Source: a virus. From it: a DNA stretch of 22,088 nucleotides. Shown piece after piece: positions 1,337 through 17,434 of the stretch. A model generated the notes under the pieces. The model did no database searches. It saw nothing but the letters and a program-made list of their open reading frames with translations, and was not told the DNA's origin. Position 1 is the first letter of the stretch. Each line of letters opens with the position of its first letter. The position numbers were made by a program, and so were the translations under genes. The stretch spans positions 1 to 22,088 of the IMG/VR virus record IMGVR_UViG_3300044720_000052; one strand, 5' to 3'.

Positions 1337-3936
1337 TGGCCGTCGGCTCGATCGGCAACCTCAAGGTCGTCCTCGACGCCGACGTCAAGGGCTTCATGGG
1401 TGGGATGGCTGCGGCCGACGCTCGCATGGCCCAGAGCTCCTCGAGGATGCAGGCCACCGGCAACAAGCTCGCCGGCGTGCTCAAGATGGGGCTCGCCGCC
1501 GGCGTCGCCGGAGTCGGCGTCGCGCTCGCGTCGTCGGTCAAGGTGGCGGGCGACTTCGAGCAGAAGCTCAGCGCCCTGAAGGCGGTCGCCGGTCCGACTG
1601 CCACGCAGTTCGCGGCGCTGCGCGAGGCGGCGCTGCAGCTGGGTGCCTCGTCCGTCTTCTCGGCCCGCCAGGTTGCTGACGCCGAAACGGAGCTGGCAAA
1701 GGCCGGCGTCTCCACCGCCGGCATCCTCGGCGGCGCGCTCAAGGGGTCGCTGTCGCTGGCGGCGGCCGGCGGCCTCGACCTCGCCGACGCGGCCAAGATC
1801 GCCGCCAACGCGATGAACCTCTTCCGTCTCAAGGGCAGCGAGGTCACCCACATCGCGGACGCCTTCGCGACGGCGGCGAACACGACCACCGCGGACGTCG
1901 CGGACTTCGGGATGGCGCTCACCCAGGGCGGCGCCGCGGCGAAGGCCGCCGGGCTCAGCTTCGACCAGACGGTGGTCATCCTCGAGGCGATGGCCAAGGC
2001 CGGCGTCAAGAACTCCGACGCCGGCACCTCGATGAAGAACGCGCTCATCCAGATCCTCTCGCCGTCGAACGCCGCCGCGAAGGCCATGAGGGCCCACAAC
2101 CTCACCCTGACCGACGCGAAGGGCAACTTCGTGAACGCCGCCGAGGCCTCGACGCGTCTGCGCGCGGCGACCGAGGGGATGACGGCGGCGCAGAAGGTCG
2201 CGTTCCTGTCGACCATCGCCGGCACCGACGGCTTCAGGACCCTGCTCGCGCTCATCGACGCCGGTCCCGCGACGCTCGCGGGGTATACGGCCGGCCTGAC
2301 AAAGACGGGCGCCGCCGCCACGACCGCCGCGGTCATGCAGGACAACTTCAAGGGCAAGCTCGAGCAGTTCAAGGGCGCGCTCGAGGTGCTCCAGATCCGA
2401 ATCGGCACCGCGCTCCTTCCGGTGCTGGCCAAGATGGCGACCGCGCTCGCCGACGCCGCTGCCTGGGTGGGCGCGCACTGGCCCCAGATCAAGGCCGTCT
2501 TCGAGACCGTCATGGACGCCGTCCGCCGCGCGGTCGAGGTCGCCGTGACCTGGATCAAGGCCAACGTCGTGCCCGCGATCCAGGGCGTGATCGCCGGCTT
2601 GCAGACGGCCTGGGGTCGGCTCGGCCCGATCGTGCTGGCCGCCTTCAACGCGGTGAAGGCGGTTGTCGGACCGGCCATCCAGACGATCAAGGCGGTCATC
2701 GAGACGGTGATGGCGCTGCTCTCGGGCGACTGGGGCAAGGTCTGGAACGGGCTGAAGGGGATCGCCAGCAACGCCCTTCAGGCTGTCGTCGCGGCCATCA
2801 AGGGGCTGATCGGCACGTTCTTCGCGGCTGCCAGGGCGCTCGGTACGGCCATCTGGGACGGCATCAAGGCCGGCCTCGCGGCGCTTGCCGGGCTCGCCTC
2901 GAAGCTCGTCCAGTTCGTCGGCTCTGCGATCTCCAGCGCCGCCGCCTGGGCGCTGCAGAAGGCGGCCGGGATCGGCCAGGCCCTGGCAACGGGTATCTGG
3001 AACGCCATCCAGGGACTCGGCGGCTGGCTGAAGGGCAAGGTCGAGAGCTGGATCGGCGGCCTGATCTCGAGCCTGAACCCGTTCAGCCCGATGGAGCACG
3101 GTGGCGCGAAGTACATCGGCGAGCCGCTGATCCGCGGCGCCGCGAACGCCATCCTGGCCGGGATGACGGTGCTCTCGGCGGCCCTGCAGAGCACCCTGCT
3201 CGGCGCGGTGAAGGCGGTCCCCGGCGTCTCCCGGAACGCGCTCCTGGAGAAGCTCGGGCTCACGATCCCGACCCAGGCGTGGGAGGCGGACCCGCTCAGC
3301 AAGGGTAACCTCGCCATGGCCATGGCGCAGCTGACACCCCAGCTCTCGGACGACCTGGCCGCGCTCCAGACGCTGGTCGGCGAGGCCACGGCCACGCTCG
3401 GGGCCGCCGCCAAGTCCGGTTCGGCCCAGGCCTACCTGACCGCCGCGAGCGGGCTGAAGCAGGCGCGCGACAACCTCGCCGCGCTCGGCCCGATGCAGCT
3501 GCTCCCCGACGGGACCGTCGTGCCGCTCGGCCCGATGTCCGACACGACCGCCTCGACAGCGGCTGCGGCCTGGGCACCCGCCAACGTGGCCGACTCCTGG
3601 GACTACTCCGCCACCGCCGCTGCGGCCACGGGGGCGAGCGCCGCCTCCACCAAGGCCTATGCGGACTGGTTCGCAGCGGGCTCGGTCGGCGCGATGCCGA
3701 TGGCGACCGGCGGCATCGTCAGCAAGCCCACGCTCGCGCTGATCGGGGAGGCAGGTCCGGAGATGGTGGTGCCGCTGGGTGCCGGCGGGGGCTACGGAGG
3801 CGGCGGTGGCGGGGCTGCCACCTACAACACCAGCGTGACCGTCAACGGCGCCAACATGACGCCCGAGCAGATCATCCGGCTCGTGGACACCTACGAGCGA
3901 CGCAACGGCCAGCGCTGGGTTCGGGTACGCCCCTGA
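1336..3936 (+). CDS. Tail tape measure protein
   Basis: 866 aa, GTG start overlapping the T stop. It is the longest gene of the window and has the hallmarks of TP901-type tape measures: an N-terminal [21 protein letters not shown] segment, a long Ala-rich helical body, a hydrophobic segment near residues 50-70, and a cluster of hydrophobic/amphipathic helices around residues 485-565. Near the C-terminus (about 790-815) is the familiar [20 protein letters not shown] motif, followed by a glycine-rich linker. The protein fixes tail length and is ejected with the DNA. No lysozyme or peptidase domain is visible inside it. Two very long antisense frames across this gene are composition artefacts. 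The stop overlaps the next ATG (TGATG). Confidence 0.9.
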
Positions 3937-4709
3937 TGCCGGTCACCCTCGCCCCCCTGTCGCAGCGGCTGGCGCAGCTCGAGGCGCAGCTGGCGGCCGT
4001 CGCCGGCGGATCGGCGCTCGCCGGCCCGGCAGGCGCGGCGGGGCCGCCCGGCGTCCAGGGGATCCAGGGCATCCCCGGAACGGCCGGCCCGGCGGGGGCT
4101 GCGGGAACGGCGGGTGCGCCCGGCGCTCAGGGGATCCAGGGCACGGCTGGTGCCGCAGGCGTCCAGGGGATCCAGGGAATCCAGGGCGTCCCGGGCCCCG
4201 CCAGCTCCATCGCGGTCCGCCAGTTCGCGCTCGTGGATGCCTGGCCGGATCCCGCCGGCGCCGCCGGCACGCTGAGCCCCACCGCGCTCGGCGCCACCAC
4301 GGCGCGCGTCTTCCCGTTCCTGCTCCCCGGCCCCCTGGTCCTGAACCGCGCGATCATAAAGACGCCGGCGGCCGCGGCGGCCGCCTTCCAGTTCGCGATC
4401 TTCTCAGAGGTCGGCGCCCGGCTCTGGACCTCCGGCGCCGTCGCCACGGTCCTCGGCTACACGGTGCTCACCGCGGCGGCGATTGCGCTGCCCGCCGGCC
4501 AGCTCTTCTTCGCCGTGACCAACAACAACGCCGTGAGCGCCGTCGCCGCACTCGCGGTGAGCCCCGCGCTCGCGGCGGCCTCCATCCCGCGCTGGGGCAC
4601 CGTGCCCGCCACGCTCGGCGCCATGCCGGCGACCATCGACCCGACCGCCATCACCGAGACCGTGGGCGGCTTCCCCGTCTACGTGGTGCTCGGCGAGTGG
4701 GCCACATGA
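3936..4709 (+). CDS. Collagen-repeat tail fibre protein
   Basis: 257 aa. Residues 1-29 form a short coiled-coil-like head ([15 protein letters not shown]), residues 30-89 are 20 uninterrupted Gly-X-Y triplets (many GIQ, GVQ, GPA, GAA), and the remaining 168 residues are a beta-rich, Ala/Val-rich globular domain. A trimerising coiled coil, a collagen stalk and a globular tip make a classic trimeric phage fibre, so receptor binding or a fibre connector is likely. It sits directly after the tape measure gene, where a distal tail protein is usually found, and overlaps both neighbours (TGATG upstream, ATGA downstream). The C-terminal domain was not recognised as a known adhesin. Confidence 0.7.
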
Positions 4710-5923: not shown

Positions 5924-5978
5924 GCCGAAGGATCCCCAGGTCCACCCGCTGATGCTCCAAACGCCCGAGGAGCCCTAA
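5907..5978 (+). CDS. Possible 23-aa micro-ORF between tail genes
   Basis: ATG at 5907 with GGAG at 5899-5902, overlapping the end of the hub gene in another frame, and TAA at 5976-5978 four bases before the next start. The peptide (begins [14 protein letters not shown]) is acidic and proline-rich with no recognised function. Its role may simply be to couple translation of the next gene, whose GAGGAG lies inside it. Confidence 0.4.
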   Translation: MSLVTEPKDPQVHPLMLQTPEEP

Positions 5979-5982
5979 CCCG

Positions 5983-6468
5983 ATGGCCGTCCGCACCGCG
6001 TATCCCGGCAGTCAGTCCGTTGGCGACGTTCTCACGAGCGCCAACTTCACAAAGCTCCCAGGCGGGTGGATCGGCTACGCGGAAGTGACCGCCAACCAGA
6101 CCGGCATCACCACCGACACCGCGCTCACCGGGCTCACCGTCACGGTGACGGTCGGGACCAGCCGCAAGATCAGGATCACCGGGGTTGGCGTCATCGAGCG
6201 CACCGTCGGTGATGGGCAGGGCATCGGCTACATCAAGGAGGGCGCCACCAAGCTCGGCCGTTGGGCACAGGCGAATCAGGTGACTGTCGCCCAGGGAAGC
6301 GGCTCCGTCGTCAGCAACCCCGGCAGCACCTTCACGACTCCCTCAGCGGGAAGTCACACGTACTTCTTGACCCTTGAGCGGACGACCGGCACCGGAACGA
6401 TCCAGCTCGACGCCGCGGCCGGGACCCCCGCCTACATCCTGGTGGAAGACATCGGCCCGGCGGCATGA
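5983..6468 (+). CDS. Tail tip / fibre-associated protein, beta-rich
   Basis: 161 aa, ATG at 5983 preceded by GAGGAG at 5967-5972. The sequence alternates Thr/Val/Gly-rich strands (TGITTDTALTGLTVTVTVGTSRKIRITG, GSHTYFLTLERTTGTGTIQLDAAAGT is the same style) with no membrane or enzymatic motif. Such all-beta, jelly-roll-like proteins following the hub gene are common in actinophage tail modules and are taken to be fibre tips or receptor-binding domains. It is the last tail gene; a hairpin follows six bases after its stop. Function is inferred from composition and position. Confidence 0.55.
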   Translation: MAVRTAYPGSQSVGDVLTSANFTKLPGGWIGYAEVTANQTGITTDTALTGLTVTVTVGTSRKIRITGVGVIERTVGDGQGIGYIKEGATKLGRWAQANQVTVAQGSGSVVSNPGSTFTTPSAGSHTYFLTLERTTGTGTIQLDAAAGTPAYILVEDIGPAA

Positions 6469-7088: not shown

Positions 7089-7207
7089 ACAGGTACGAGC
7101 GTGGGTGGGTCGCCGTGTTGGCCCGCATTCGCCGGCAGTGCCTCATCGTCGTCGCCGCCGAGGGGCTCGCCCTGATCGCCCTGGCGGTGGGGATGGTCGT
7201 CCGTTGA
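7085..7207 (+). CDS. 40-aa single-TM membrane protein
   Basis: GTG at 7085 overlaps the previous stop (GTGA). The peptide has a basic N-terminus ([17 protein letters not shown]) and one hydrophobic stretch rich in Val, Ala and Leu ending in MVVR, so it should be an N-in single-span protein. Its TGA overlaps the TTG start of the next gene. The position between two other membrane genes suggests a role in lysis or envelope modification (antiholin-like size), but nothing specific is recognisable. Confidence 0.5.
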
Positions 7208-8001
7208 GGAAGCACCCCCTCCTCGCGAAGGTGATGGCGCTGCGGGTGTCGCTGGTGCTGGCGATGGCCGTGCTCGCCTGCTCGCTCGGCGCCACCGTCT
7301 ACGCCGTCTACCTCGCATCGACGGCCAACGAGAAGGCGTCGAACGCCAACCGGGCGTTGATCGACGGCCTTCAGCGGCAGAGCGACGCCACTGACGCCAA
7401 GGTCAGCCGAAGCAACAAGTCGACCTGCGACTGGCTGAAGCCACGCGACGGTCTGCTCGTCGGTCTTGCCCAGGACCGCGGCTTGCGGGTCAAGGCCGTG
7501 CCCGAGGACTGTGCAAAGTTCGCCGTGACCGGCACCTTCAAGCCGCTTCCGAAGCCTGCGCGCGGAGTCCCCCCCGTGATAGCGCAGCTGCGGGGAACGC
7601 CCGGTACGGCCGGCGCGCAGGGCGCCCCTGGACGTCAGGGGCTTCGAGGCGTGACCGGGCCGCTGGGTCCGGTGGGGCCGTCCGGTCCCGTGGGGCAACC
7701 GGGTCCGAAGGGTGACCCGGGTCCGCAGGGTGCGGAAGGTCCTCGGGGTGCGGACGGTGCGGAGGGTGCTCGGGGTCCGCAAGGTGCGGACGGTCCTCGG
7801 GGTGCAGATGGGTCTGCCGGGCCTGCCGGGCCCGAAGGCGCGCAGGGCCCCCCCGGCACCTCTGCCGACCAGGCGGAGGTCGCGGCCCTGGCTGCCCAGG
7901 TGCAGGCGCTGACTGCCCAGGAGCAAGCAGACCAGGCGCGCATCGCCGCGCTCGAGGCCCAGGTCGCGGCGCTTATGCCGCCGGCGCCGGCGGTGCCATG
8001 A
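7204..8001 (+). CDS. Membrane-anchored collagen-like / coiled-coil protein
   Basis: 265 aa if started at TTG 7204 (TTGA overlap); ATG 7234 behind GCGAAGG is the alternative. Domains in order: basic N-terminus; one TM near residues 11-37 ([24 protein letters not shown]); a helical ectodomain with two cysteines ([15 protein letters not shown]) that could form a disulphide; 30 uninterrupted Gly-X-Y triplets at residues 131-220 (bases 7594-7863), including GPKGDP; then a heptad-like coiled coil ([20 protein letters not shown]) and a Pro/Ala tail. It would be a trimeric rod projecting from the cytoplasmic membrane. The long open frame upstream of 7204 belongs to the shadow of the previous gene. 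The function is unknown: envelope disruption, surface decoration of lysogens or exclusion are all possible. Confidence 0.7.
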
Positions 8002-8204
8002 CGGGCGACGAGCCCATGCCGATGCCGTTGATCCGCGCGGGCTTCCTCTACTGCCGCTGGTGCCGCTCCTGGCATGCGGCGAGCTTCCTCTACTGCAAGC
8101 GGGGGACCTTCCGCGGGTGGCTCAACCTCTGGCGCGACCGGCTCGGTGGACCGCCGCGCTGGCCGCGCTCGACGGACCATCTCCCACCGACAGGAGGGCC
8201 ATGA
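7998..8204 (+). CDS. Small Cys/Trp-rich protein
   Basis: 68 aa, ATGA overlap with the collagen-like gene. The core [21 protein letters not shown] carries a CxxC and a further Cys and His, a possible single zinc site (CxxC...H...C), followed by a basic Trp-rich stretch and a Pro-rich tail. FLYC occurs twice. No signal peptide or TM is evident. No known family was recognised. Its TGA overlaps the ATG of a 13-codon leader ORF. Confidence 0.5.
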
Positions 8205-8242
8205 CAAACGCGACCCCAACGCCGCCGCCGCCGGTCCCGTGA
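8201..8242 (+). CDS. 13-aa poly-proline leader ORF
   Basis: ATG at 8201 behind a perfect AGGAGG (8192-8197), encoding [13 protein letters not shown] and ending at TGA 8240-8242. The metzincin GTG begins on the very next base (8243) and has no SD of its own. Four consecutive prolines are a known ribosome-stalling context that needs EF-P, so this ORF may be a translational leader that sets expression of the protease by coupling or stalling. The arrangement is seen; regulation is inferred. Confidence 0.45.
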   Translation: MTNATPTPPPPVP

Positions 8243-8635
8243 GTGAACTGGCGCACGCTGGCGGCGGTGGCGCTCCTGGTCCTGGTGCCGTTCATCCTCC
8301 CGGCGTCGAGCCTGCCGTCGTCGGTGCTGCGGGCGATCCCGCTCGCCCGCGTCTACTGGGGGCCGGCTCCATGCGGGCGCCTGCGGGTGGTGGTCACGCC
8401 GCTGCACATCCCGGAGCCCCTCAACGGGCTCACGAATGCCGGCTATGCGCTCCCCGCACGCTGCCTGATCGTGCTCGATCCCGACTTCGTCGAGCAGATG
8501 CCCGATTGGCTCATCTGCGAAAGCCTCCTCCATGAGGCCGGTCATCTGCATGGCCGCGGCCACTCGCTGAACCCGGCCGCCATCATGTTCCGCCAGCTCG
8601 GCAGGCATCACTACCCCTGCCGCTCCACCCGTTGA
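8243..8635 (+). CDS. Minimal secreted metzincin-type zinc metalloprotease
   Basis: 130 aa, GTG at 8243. An N-terminal hydrophobic helix (residues 5-20, LAAVALLVLVPFILPASS) is a signal peptide or anchor. Residues 97-107 read HEAGHLHGRGH, an exact HExxHxxGxxH: His97, His101 and His107 would bind zinc and Glu98 would be the catalytic base. Met115 in SLNPAAIM, eight residues later, fits the Met-turn of metzincins/matrixins. Four cysteines (44, 74, 92, 126) could form two disulphides, fitting an extracytoplasmic location. It lies just before the holin and endolysin. It is small compared with usual metzincin domains (about 150 or more residues). A role in cleaving envelope or surface proteins during lysis is inferred; only the fold class is supported by motif. 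Confidence 0.75.
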   Translation: MNWRTLAAVALLVLVPFILPASSLPSSVLRAIPLARVYWGPAPCGRLRVVVTPLHIPEPLNGLTNAGYALPARCLIVLDPDFVEQMPDWLICESLLHEAGHLHGRGHSLNPAAIMFRQLGRHHYPCRSTR

Positions 8636-8645
8636 GAGGAGGGCC

Positions 8646-8903
8646 ATGAGCCCGAACCGCGTGGTCGCCATCGCGACTGCGGTCATCGCACTGATCCTCG
8701 GCCTGCTGCCGGTGCTGGGAGGGATGGACACCACCTCCACCGCCGGCATCATCGCCGGCATCGCCGCGCTCCTGGGCGTGGCCTACAAGTGGCTCGACGG
8801 CTGGCAGAAGCACGAGGCGCGCCTTGCCACGACCGCCGGCCCCGACGACCCCGCCTTCCCCGTGGTCGGTGACGAGGTCCAGAACCAGATCGTGGTGCCC
8901 TGA
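8646..8903 (+). CDS. Holin, two-TM
   Basis: 85 aa, ATG at 8646 behind GAGGAGG. Two hydrophobic helices (about 7-25, VVAIATAVIALILGLLPVLG, and 32-49, TAGIIAGIAALLGVAYKWL) are joined by a short turn and followed by a polar, partly acidic C-terminus. This is the usual class II holin layout of actinophages. It would form membrane lesions that release the endolysin or trigger lysis. It lies two genes before the endolysin. Its stop overlaps the next ATG (TGATG). Confidence 0.7.
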   Translation: MSPNRVVAIATAVIALILGLLPVLGGMDTTSTAGIIAGIAALLGVAYKWLDGWQKHEARLATTAGPDDPAFPVVGDEVQNQIVVP

Positions 8904-9151
8904 TGCGGCGCTTCACGCTCTACCGACGCGATATCGAACCGGGCACTGAGCGATTTCCGGCGCAGGCGTACAACGATCCTGCCACAGCACAAGTGGAAGG
9001 CGTTGTGTTCTCGGATGGGCGAGTGGCCTGCCGTTGGCTCACGGCCTTCCGGTCGACCGTGGCCTGGGACTCCTTCGCGGACTTTGAGGCGATCCACGGC
9101 CACCCGGAGTACGGGACCGAGATTGTCTGGCAAGACGAGGAGGGCGCCTGA
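8903..9151 (+). CDS. Hypothetical protein between holin and endolysin
   Basis: 82 aa, translationally overlapping both neighbours (TGATG at 8901-8905 and 9149-9153). It is soluble and acidic overall, with no TM or Cys motif, and contains FTLYRRDIEPGTERF and VVFSDGRVACRWLTAFRSTVAWDSFADFEAIHGHPE. The GRVACRW...S...W.S...F...HG pattern looks like a small beta-rich domain seen in hypothetical phage proteins. No function is assigned. Cotranscription with lysis genes is certain from spacing. Confidence 0.6.
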   Translation: MRRFTLYRRDIEPGTERFPAQAYNDPATAQVEGVVFSDGRVACRWLTAFRSTVAWDSFADFEAIHGHPEYGTEIVWQDEEGA

Positions 9152-9867
9152 TGCCGCGCTCGCTCCGGGCGGGCGACCGGGGGCCGGACGTCCAGGCGCT
9201 CCAGCAGGGGCTCCGCAAGGCGCTCCGGGACAAGGCGGTCAACAACGGGAAGGGCGTCTACGGCAGCCTGACCGTTCGCGATGTCGCCGCGTTCAAGCGG
9301 GCGTGGACCTCGGAGTCCGATGGCCACTTCGCCGGGGCGCTGGTCTGGAAGCACCTCGAGCAGTACCTCGGCGCCGGTCAGCGTCGGCTCCTGAGGCAGG
9401 CCCAGGCGCTGGAGGTCGCTCGTCAGCACGAGAGCAAGGAGCAGGCGCTGCGGGGCGCCATCGTGGCCGAGGCGTACTGGGCGCTCGCGAACAACGGGCT
9501 CTTCGTCTACCGCCAGTACCGCCCTATGCCGGCCAGCCTGCGGGTGAAGGAGGCGCGCGATGAGGTGGACTGCTCGACCCTCGTCACCCTCTGCTACAAG
9601 GCGGCGGGTGCGATCGATCCGAATGGCCTGGGCTACAACGGCCAGGGCTACACCGGCTCCCAGTGGGGAAGGGGCGAGGCCATCGCTAGCCCCCAGCCCG
9701 GCGACGTCGCCTTCTACGGCAACATGGGGAACGGCATCCCCAGCCACGAGGCGCTCGTGGTGGACGGCGGGAACGTGATCTCGTTCGGCCACACTCCCAT
9801 TTCCAAGTACCCGCTGCACTACCGCGCCTCGGACTACCGCGGGTCGCGGCGCTACTCCGTTGTCTGA
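9151..9867 (+). CDS. Endolysin: peptidoglycan-binding + NlpC/P60-type amidohydrolase
   Basis: 238 aa, ATG 9151 (TGATG overlap). Residues about 5-70 (LRAGDRGPDVQALQQGLRKAL ... AFKRAWTSESDG) match a PG_binding_1 domain. The catalytic part begins near residue 105: DCSTLVTLCYKAAG gives the nucleophile Cys141, PQPGDVAFYG is the usual pre-His segment, and His199 in SHEALVV is the likely partner; His214 (SFGHTP) is also placed well for the triad. NlpC/P60 and CHAP enzymes share this Cys-His pattern; the DCSTLV and PGDV spelling favours NlpC/P60. It would cut cell wall peptides. There is no signal peptide, so export depends on the holin. The binding domain being N-terminal is common in actinophage lysins. 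Confidence 0.85.
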   Translation: MPRSLRAGDRGPDVQALQQGLRKALRDKAVNNGKGVYGSLTVRDVAAFKRAWTSESDGHFAGALVWKHLEQYLGAGQRRLLRQAQALEVARQHESKEQALRGAIVAEAYWALANNGLFVYRQYRPMPASLRVKEARDEVDCSTLVTLCYKAAGAIDPNGLGYNGQGYTGSQWGRGEAIASPQPGDVAFYGNMGNGIPSHEALVVDGGNVISFGHTPISKYPLHYRASDYRGSRRYSVV

Positions 9868-16785: not shown

Positions 16786-16988
16786 GCGACGTCATCGACC
16801 TCACGTGCAGCACGTGCGAGGCGCGCCAGCGCGGCACATACACGCTCCCGGCCGCCTGCCGTAACTGCGGCTGGACCGGTTACGTGCGCTTGAGCCGCGG
16901 ACACGAGCGCCCCATCGGCGCCGAGTGCCCCGTCTGCGGTTGCCGCAACGTGCGCGCTGCTCACGGCGCGTGGAGCACTACCGCGTGA
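16782..16988 (+). CDS. Three-knuckle zinc-ribbon protein
   Basis: 68 aa, GTG 16782 (GTGA overlap). Three CxxC knuckles are visible: LTCSTCEARQ, AACRNCGWTG and AECPVCGCRN. The first two would make one zinc ribbon, with CPVC plus the following Cys and a His or Cys making another site. A short segment between them (YVRLSRGHERPIGAE) is beta-like. Function unknown. It is one of several Cys-rich microproteins in this operon. Confidence 0.6.
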   Translation: MSDVIDLTCSTCEARQRGTYTLPAACRNCGWTGYVRLSRGHERPIGAECPVCGCRNVRAAHGAWSTTA

Positions 16989-17434
16989 GGACCATCGTCG
17001 TCGCAGGCGCCCTGGTCCTCGCCATCCTGGGAGCCGGCCTCACCGGCGCCGCCGAGGAGCAGCGCACGAGCGAGCAGCGCTCCGGGTTGGACTTCCGCCG
17101 CGCCGTGTCCGTGGAGCTCGGCCGCCTTCACCGCATCGTGGACCGCCAGCGCGCCGTGCTGCGCCACCGGCCGTCGGTGCAGGAGGCCCTGGATCTGGCG
17201 GCGGTGACGTTCGGGGTGAGCCGCGACGAGCTGGGCCGGATCGCTTTTTGCGAGAGCCGCTTCCAGCCCGAGGCGACCAACGGCCAGTACATCGGCCTCA
17301 TGCAGTTCGGTCCGCTCTGGTACTCGACGCCCTATGCGGCGCTTCCCCGCACCAGCCCGTACGCCGCAGCGCTCGCGGCCGCCTGGGTGCGGCGCGAGCA
17401 GGGATCGTGGCGCGCGTGGAGCTGCTGGCGATGA
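16985..17434 (+). CDS. Secreted lytic transglycosylase (SLT-like) in the early operon
   Basis: 149 aa, GTG 16985 (GTGA overlap). A signal peptide is clear (MRTIVVAGALVLAILGAGLTG then AAEEQ, with an AxA-like cleavage area). After a helical spacer, FGVSRDELGRIAFCESRFQP and YIGLMQFGPLWYST match an SLT/Rpf-type lysozyme-fold domain: Glu90 in CESRF is the catalytic residue and GLMQF is the second conserved motif, followed by a short helical end (PYAAALAAAWVRREQGSWRAWSCW). It would cleave peptidoglycan outside the membrane. This domain normally sits in virion proteins or chromosomal Rpf genes; here it is between early zinc-finger genes, far from the lysis module. Confidence 0.75.
   Translation: MRTIVVAGALVLAILGAGLTGAAEEQRTSEQRSGLDFRRAVSVELGRLHRIVDRQRAVLRHRPSVQEALDLAAVTFGVSRDELGRIAFCESRFQPEATNGQYIGLMQFGPLWYSTPYAALPRTSPYAAALAAAWVRREQGSWRAWSCWR

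What the first reader, a model, noticed from the sequence alone, without database searches (positions are those of the whole stretch)
8243..8635. Minimal phage metzincin beside holin and endolysin
HEAGHLHGRGH is an exact HExxHxxGxxH, with a Met eight residues later, in a 130-aa secreted protein with four cysteines. Phage lysis modules usually carry wall hydrolases, not proteases. The enzyme might cut surface-layer or wall-linked proteins, process the collagen-like membrane protein encoded two genes upstream, or activate the lysin. Its size is near the lower limit for the fold.
Basis: partly seen in the sequence, partly recalled or inferred. Interest (0 to 1): 0.65.

Follow-up and report, generated by a model that had tools for sequence, protein, structure and literature searches.

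The report
Small cysteine-stabilised phage matrixin-like protease

Summary
Residues 97-107 of the 130-aa ORF at 8243-8635 read HEAGHLHGRGH, Met115 lies eight residues after the third His, and there are four Cys. Chance expectation for the motif in the window is 0.0035. Alone, the protein has almost no database match. A motif scan plus profile searches recovered about 30 further viral contigs and about 11 chromosomal copies from one class of Actinomycetota. In the 31-row alignment all three His, both motif Gly, the Met and the last Cys are invariant; Glu98 is kept in 30 of 31. Models (pLDDT 84 and 92) give a stripped-down metzincin core of helix A, three strands, helix B and Met-turn, closest to matrixins, archaemetzincin and selecase. 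Cysteine spacing and co-loss suggest bonds C44-C74 and C92-C126. The order metzincin, holin, endolysin recurs in two other phages, so the lysis link is not a single accident, but most relatives sit elsewhere, often opposite tail genes. A working precedent exists: Listeria prophage Mtz-Tim. Best reading: a lysis-accessory envelope protease, substrate unknown. One relative carries an intact copy plus a catalytically dead paralogue. New variant of a known kind.

The parts
8243..8635 (+). 130-aa matrixin-like metzincin (P0001), GTG start
8531..8563 (+). HEAGHLHGRGH: zinc ligands H97, H101, H107 and general base E98
8585..8587 (+). Met115 of the Met-turn, third His +8, invariant in the family
8243..8317 (+). 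hydrophobic N-terminal signal or anchor segment (residues 1-25)
   Evidence: sequence; helix 3-13 in the model
8318..8359 (+). helix A ending in the AxxYWG motif (residues 26-39)
8372..8374 (+). Cys44, inferred partner of Cys74
   Evidence: spacing and co-loss in L148, L157, L052
8462..8464 (+). Cys74
8516..8518 (+). Cys92, five residues before H97, inferred partner of Cys126
8618..8620 (+). Cys126, invariant after the Met-turn
8201..8242 (+). in-frame 13-codon leader ORF with Shine-Dalgarno, ending in TGA directly before GTG 8243
7204..8001 (+). collagen-like protein with N-terminal hydrophobic segment, candidate but unproven substrate
7998..8204 (+). 68-aa Cys-containing protein between the collagen-like gene and the metzincin
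8646..8903 (+). holin by position; homologue (56% overall, 64% over 59 aa) directly downstream of the metzincin in L146
8903..9151 (+). 82-aa phage protein of unknown function (phrog_21173)
9151..9867 (+). endolysin: peptidoglycan-binding plus NlpC/P60

Best explanation
The gene encodes a minimal, probably disulfide-stabilised metzincin endopeptidase. It reaches the outside of the membrane by an N-terminal signal or anchor segment, folds there with two disulfides, binds zinc through H97, H101 and H107 with E98 as base, and cuts one or more proteins of the host envelope late in infection. This would make the cell easier to lyse by the neighbouring holin and endolysin, as the Listeria prophage metzincin Mtz does. 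Shown by computation: the motif, the family conservation, the predicted fold, the cysteine pattern and the recurring metzincin-holin-endolysin order. Inferred: export, zinc, proteolysis, timing, substrate and the effect on lysis.
For: Invariant catalytic set and Met-turn across 31 divergent sequences, bar one Glu. 27 of 31 members match Pfam matrixin, best 5e-9; a profile of the family matches MMP-12 and MMP-8 at 2e-9 to 6e-9. Models with pLDDT 83.8 and 92.4 whose nearest solved structures are metzincins and mini-zincins. Same gene order in L146 (SLT/M23 gene, small membrane genes, metzincin, homologous holin, NlpC/P60 endolysin) and L155 (collagen-like, metzincin, holin-like, CHAP endolysin). 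In the tree the window groups (90/81) with L146, L160, L148, L157 and L052; L146 is in a lysis cassette and L160 and L148 follow baseplate genes on the same strand. In two other phages with this holin the same slot holds a VanY/PG-binding wall peptidase. Experimental precedent: Mtz-Tim with active Mtz gave culture-wide lysis and about five-fold more virions (PMC8235301).
Against: Most relatives are not in a lysis cassette: many stand alone opposite tail genes or among small early genes, and chromosomal copies exist. No TIMP-like partner was identified. The window protein is on a long branch with about 34% identity to its nearest relative. The Foldseek E-values are only 2.5e-3 and 4.2e-3 at best. 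No activity has been tested. Phages related by a tail gene lack any HExxHxxGxxH in the stretches held, so the gene is dispensable.
Confidence: 0.5

Rival explanations
1. A moron: a secreted protease gene traded between phages and hosts that serves the lysogen or competes with other cells and phages, with no part in lysis.
For: Varied gene positions, often with its own orientation at the end of a tail operon (L127, L132, L141-L144, L147, L159, L161); chromosomal homologues at ordinary loci in one class of Actinomycetota (12 of 299 genomes); a copy beside an integrase gene in G601 (L261).
Against: In the window, L146 and L155 the gene is co-directional and packed between late genes, with the holin next to it.
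Confidence: 0.27
2. A dedicated processing protease that cuts the neighbouring membrane-anchored collagen-like protein, freeing it as Mtz frees Tim.
For: Collagen-like gene two genes upstream in the window and directly upstream in L155; Mtz cleaves the lipoprotein encoded next to it (PMC8235301).
Against: 26 of 33 family loci have no collagen-like ORF within 8 kb, including the close relative L146; the 2 of 117 background is not host-matched; collagen-like tail proteins are common in phages.
Confidence: 0.1
3. A wall hydrolase that cuts peptide bonds of peptidoglycan, standing in for the VanY-type peptidase found in the same slot in other phages.
For: L269 and L271 carry VanY plus PG-binding directly upstream of a homologous holin.
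Against: As far as I know metzincins cut protein chains rather than wall peptides (own knowledge); no wall-binding domain; VanY has a different fold and motif.
Confidence: 0.07
4. A binding protein or decaying gene without protease activity.
For: Catalytic residues lost in L147 (HAVGH), L249 (HNVGH), L257 (REVGH) and the second copy in L155; in-frame TGA before the window ORF.
Against: The window copy keeps every catalytic residue and all four Cys, and most of the family does too.
Confidence: 0.06

Closest known systems
Listeria Mtz-Tim pair (PMC8235301)
   Same: Secreted phage-associated metzincin with HExxHxxGxxH/D and Met-turn, often near holin-lysin in prophages; enhances phage lysis
   Different: Has a TIMP-like lipoprotein partner, in Firmicutes; no partner seen here; the Mtz sequence itself was not compared
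Matrixins (Pfam PF00413, MEROPS M10)
   Same: HExGHxxGxxHS, Met at third His +8, helix A with W, best profile and fold matches
   Different: Window protein scores 15.4 against a cut-off of 24; three predicted strands instead of five; conserved four-Cys pattern; no propeptide seen
Archaemetzincins (M54)
   Same: Metzincin core; top fold match 3lmc
   Different: Their signature has Cys right after the third His and a late CxxC (PMC3427221); absent here
Snapalysin (M7) of Streptomyces
   Same: Very small secreted actinobacterial metzincin
   Different: Third ligand is Asp in snapalysin (own knowledge); M7 is not among the Pfam families matched by members
Selecase and abylysin mini-zincins
   Same: About 105-110 residues; fold matches
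   Different: To my knowledge not secreted three-His Met-turn enzymes with two disulfides

Membership tests
Metzincin | HExxHxxGxxH/D zinc site | tested here: met
Metzincin | Met-turn Met after the third ligand | tested here: met
   Met115 invariant
Metzincin | overall fold with helix A, sheet, helix B, lower subdomain | tested here: met
   models and Foldseek, reduced sheet; zinc geometry could not be measured (no coordinates)
Metzincin | bound zinc and proteolytic activity | not testable with these tools
   needs protein
Matrixin (PF00413) | Pfam curated cut-off | tested here: not met
   window protein 15.4 bits against 24; relatives match down to 5e-9
Matrixin (PF00413) | HExGHxxGxxHS with Met at +8 | tested here: met
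   HEAGHLHGRGHSLNPAAIM
Matrixin (PF00413) | five-stranded sheet | tested here: not met
   three strands predicted
Archaemetzincin (M54) | Cys after the third His and CxxC | tested here: not met
   sequence; signature from PMC3427221 (abstract)
Snapalysin (M7) | HExxHxxGxxD and the M7 profile | tested here: not met
   third ligand is His; no M7 among matched families
Mtz-Tim pair | adjacent TIMP-like partner | tested here: inconclusive
   no candidate by sequence in the window; the Tim resemblance is structural only (PMC8235301) and neighbours were not folded

The most novel reading that the evidence does not exclude
A phage-borne metzincin family in which some phages pair an active enzyme with a catalytically dead paralogue (L155: intact copy at 7704-8156, dead copy at 5924-6451 on the other strand, with 4 Cys and Met-turn kept), the dead one acting as decoy, inhibitor or substrate adaptor that tunes envelope proteolysis and lysis.
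Probability: 0.1. Interest if true: 0.72.

Novelty: new variant of a known kind. Interest (0 to 1): 0.46.

Why it matters
It suggests that envelope proteolysis is a recurring aid to phage lysis outside Firmicutes, and it defines a compact, probably two-disulfide metzincin scaffold of about 95-130 residues that phages and hosts of one actinobacterial class appear to share. The family has no profile of its own in PHROGs or NCBIfam.

Tried and rejected
Direct searches with the single protein found nothing significant in phages, IMG/VR or GTDB genomes. Endolysin search: nothing. Two motif scans were wasted because I wrote the pattern one base short; corrected. Relatives found by the tail gene (L002-L006) lack the metzincin. 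Searches with relatives against cultured phages and plasmids gave no member, except motif-length matches to an Acinetobacter phage matrixin and weak chance-level hits. The collagen-substrate idea was tested by neighbourhood counts and not upheld as general. Recoding of TGA was considered for the stop before GTG 8243 and rejected, because many genes here end in TGA at ATGA overlaps. Class controls: the Kineosporia class gave only partial, motif-region matches (profile positions 59-128 at most) in 4 of 297 genomes, and the class of an Acidimicrobiia MAG gave 0 of 296.

Full report
What is there. The window is a whole 22,088-base IMG/VR virus record with tail genes, a lysis region and an integrase gene. 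The ORF at 8243-8635 gives 130 aa with HEAGHLHGRGH and Met115. HExxHxxGxxH occurs once in the six frames, against 0.0035 expected from residue shuffles. Upstream, ATG 8201 has a Shine-Dalgarno and an ATGA overlap with the gene before it, reads [13 protein letters not shown] and stops at TGA 8240-8242, directly before GTG 8243 in the same frame. The protein is probably made by re-initiation, or the stop is an error; this is open.

Finding the family. Alone, the protein matches matrixin only at E 0.018, no PHROG or NCBIfam model, MMPs and a zinc peptidase only above 0.1, and no relative in three collections. A DNA pattern for HExGHxxGxxH with [IV]M at the matrixin spacing gave at least 120 viral stretches, so matrixin-type enzymes as such are not rare in phage contigs. 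Among them a distinct small type shared the window's cysteine pattern. An alignment of five fetched 36 viral loci, many of them covering most of the query. The resulting 31-row alignment has invariant H97, G100, H101, G104, H107, M115 and C126 and near-invariant A35, E98, S108 and P111.

Fold. Models for the window protein (pLDDT 83.8, pTM 0.74) and for L137 (pLDDT 92.4, pTM 0.81) show an N-terminal helix, helix A, three strands, the zinc helix and a Met-turn loop, with a further C-terminal helix in L137. The nearest solved structures are archaemetzincin, selecase, MMPs and abylysin and MMPs, with modest E-values (2.5e-3 and 4.2e-3 at best) and Foldseek probability near 1. Sequence profiles agree.

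Cysteines. Relative to H97, Cys fall near -53, -23, -5 and +29 in nearly all members, viral and chromosomal. L148, L157 and L052 lack the first two together and keep the last two, which points to C44-C74 and C92-C126. This is inference.

Where it occurs. Many of the chromosomal copies sit at ordinary loci, for instance near a thioredoxin-reductase-like gene; one is next to an integrase gene (L261). Traffic between phages and hosts of that class is likely; the direction is not resolved.

Gene setting. In L146 the order is SLT/M23 gene, small membrane genes, metzincin, holin homologous to the window's, NlpC/P60 endolysin. In L155 it is collagen-like, metzincin, holin-like, CHAP endolysin. In L269 and L271 the slot before a related holin holds a VanY/PG-binding peptidase. 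Elsewhere the gene follows baseplate genes (L148, L160), lies opposite tail or other late genes (L127, L128, L132, L141-L144, L147, L159, L161) or sits among small genes away from the lysis region (L129, L134-L139). So the lysis link is real for the window and some kin, but not for the whole family.

Catalytic exceptions. L147 has HAVGH, chromosomal L249 HNVGH and L257 REVGH, and L159 and L161 carry an insert before the third His. L155 holds a second, divergent copy with the zinc site gone but the cysteines and Met-turn kept, found independently by the family profile at 1.7e-12. These are exceptions, and the dead copy beside a live one is the most unusual thing seen.

Mechanism. In Listeria, a phage-associated secreted metzincin cleaves its partner lipoprotein, and active Mtz with Tim makes cells more sensitive to phage lysis and raises virion release about five-fold (PMC8235301). 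By analogy, I think most likely that this protein cuts an envelope protein late in infection and helps lysis (0.5). A moron role unrelated to lysis is the main rival (0.27). The substrate is unknown; the collagen-like neighbour is possible but not general.

Verdict. A real metzincin, by sequence and predicted fold, of a new small family and a new variant of a known kind. It is not a formal matrixin by Pfam's cut-off or by strand count, and not an archaemetzincin or snapalysin, but it would work on matrixin lines.

Noticed in passing
L155:5924-6451 (-): Second family member with all catalytic residues lost but 4 Cys, Trp and Met-turn kept, in a phage that also has an intact copy at 7704-8156.
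   Followed up: partly
window 8201-8245: In-frame 13-codon leader with polyproline and TGA directly before GTG 8243, possible re-initiation or a sequencing error.
   Followed up: partly
window 16985-17434: Short protein with N-terminal hydrophobic segment and weak SLT transglycosylase similarity, far from the lysis genes.
   Followed up: partly
L269:3074-3934, L271:2975-3886: VanY plus PG-binding peptidase directly upstream of holins related to the window's, the slot the metzincin takes here.
   Followed up: yes
L257 (G601) against L253 (G645): Chromosomal family member near a thioredoxin-reductase-like gene: intact HEIGH in one genome, REVGH in the other.
   Followed up: partly
window 7204-8001 and 3936-4709: Two collagen-like genes in one phage, one with an N-terminal hydrophobic segment.
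   Followed up: partly
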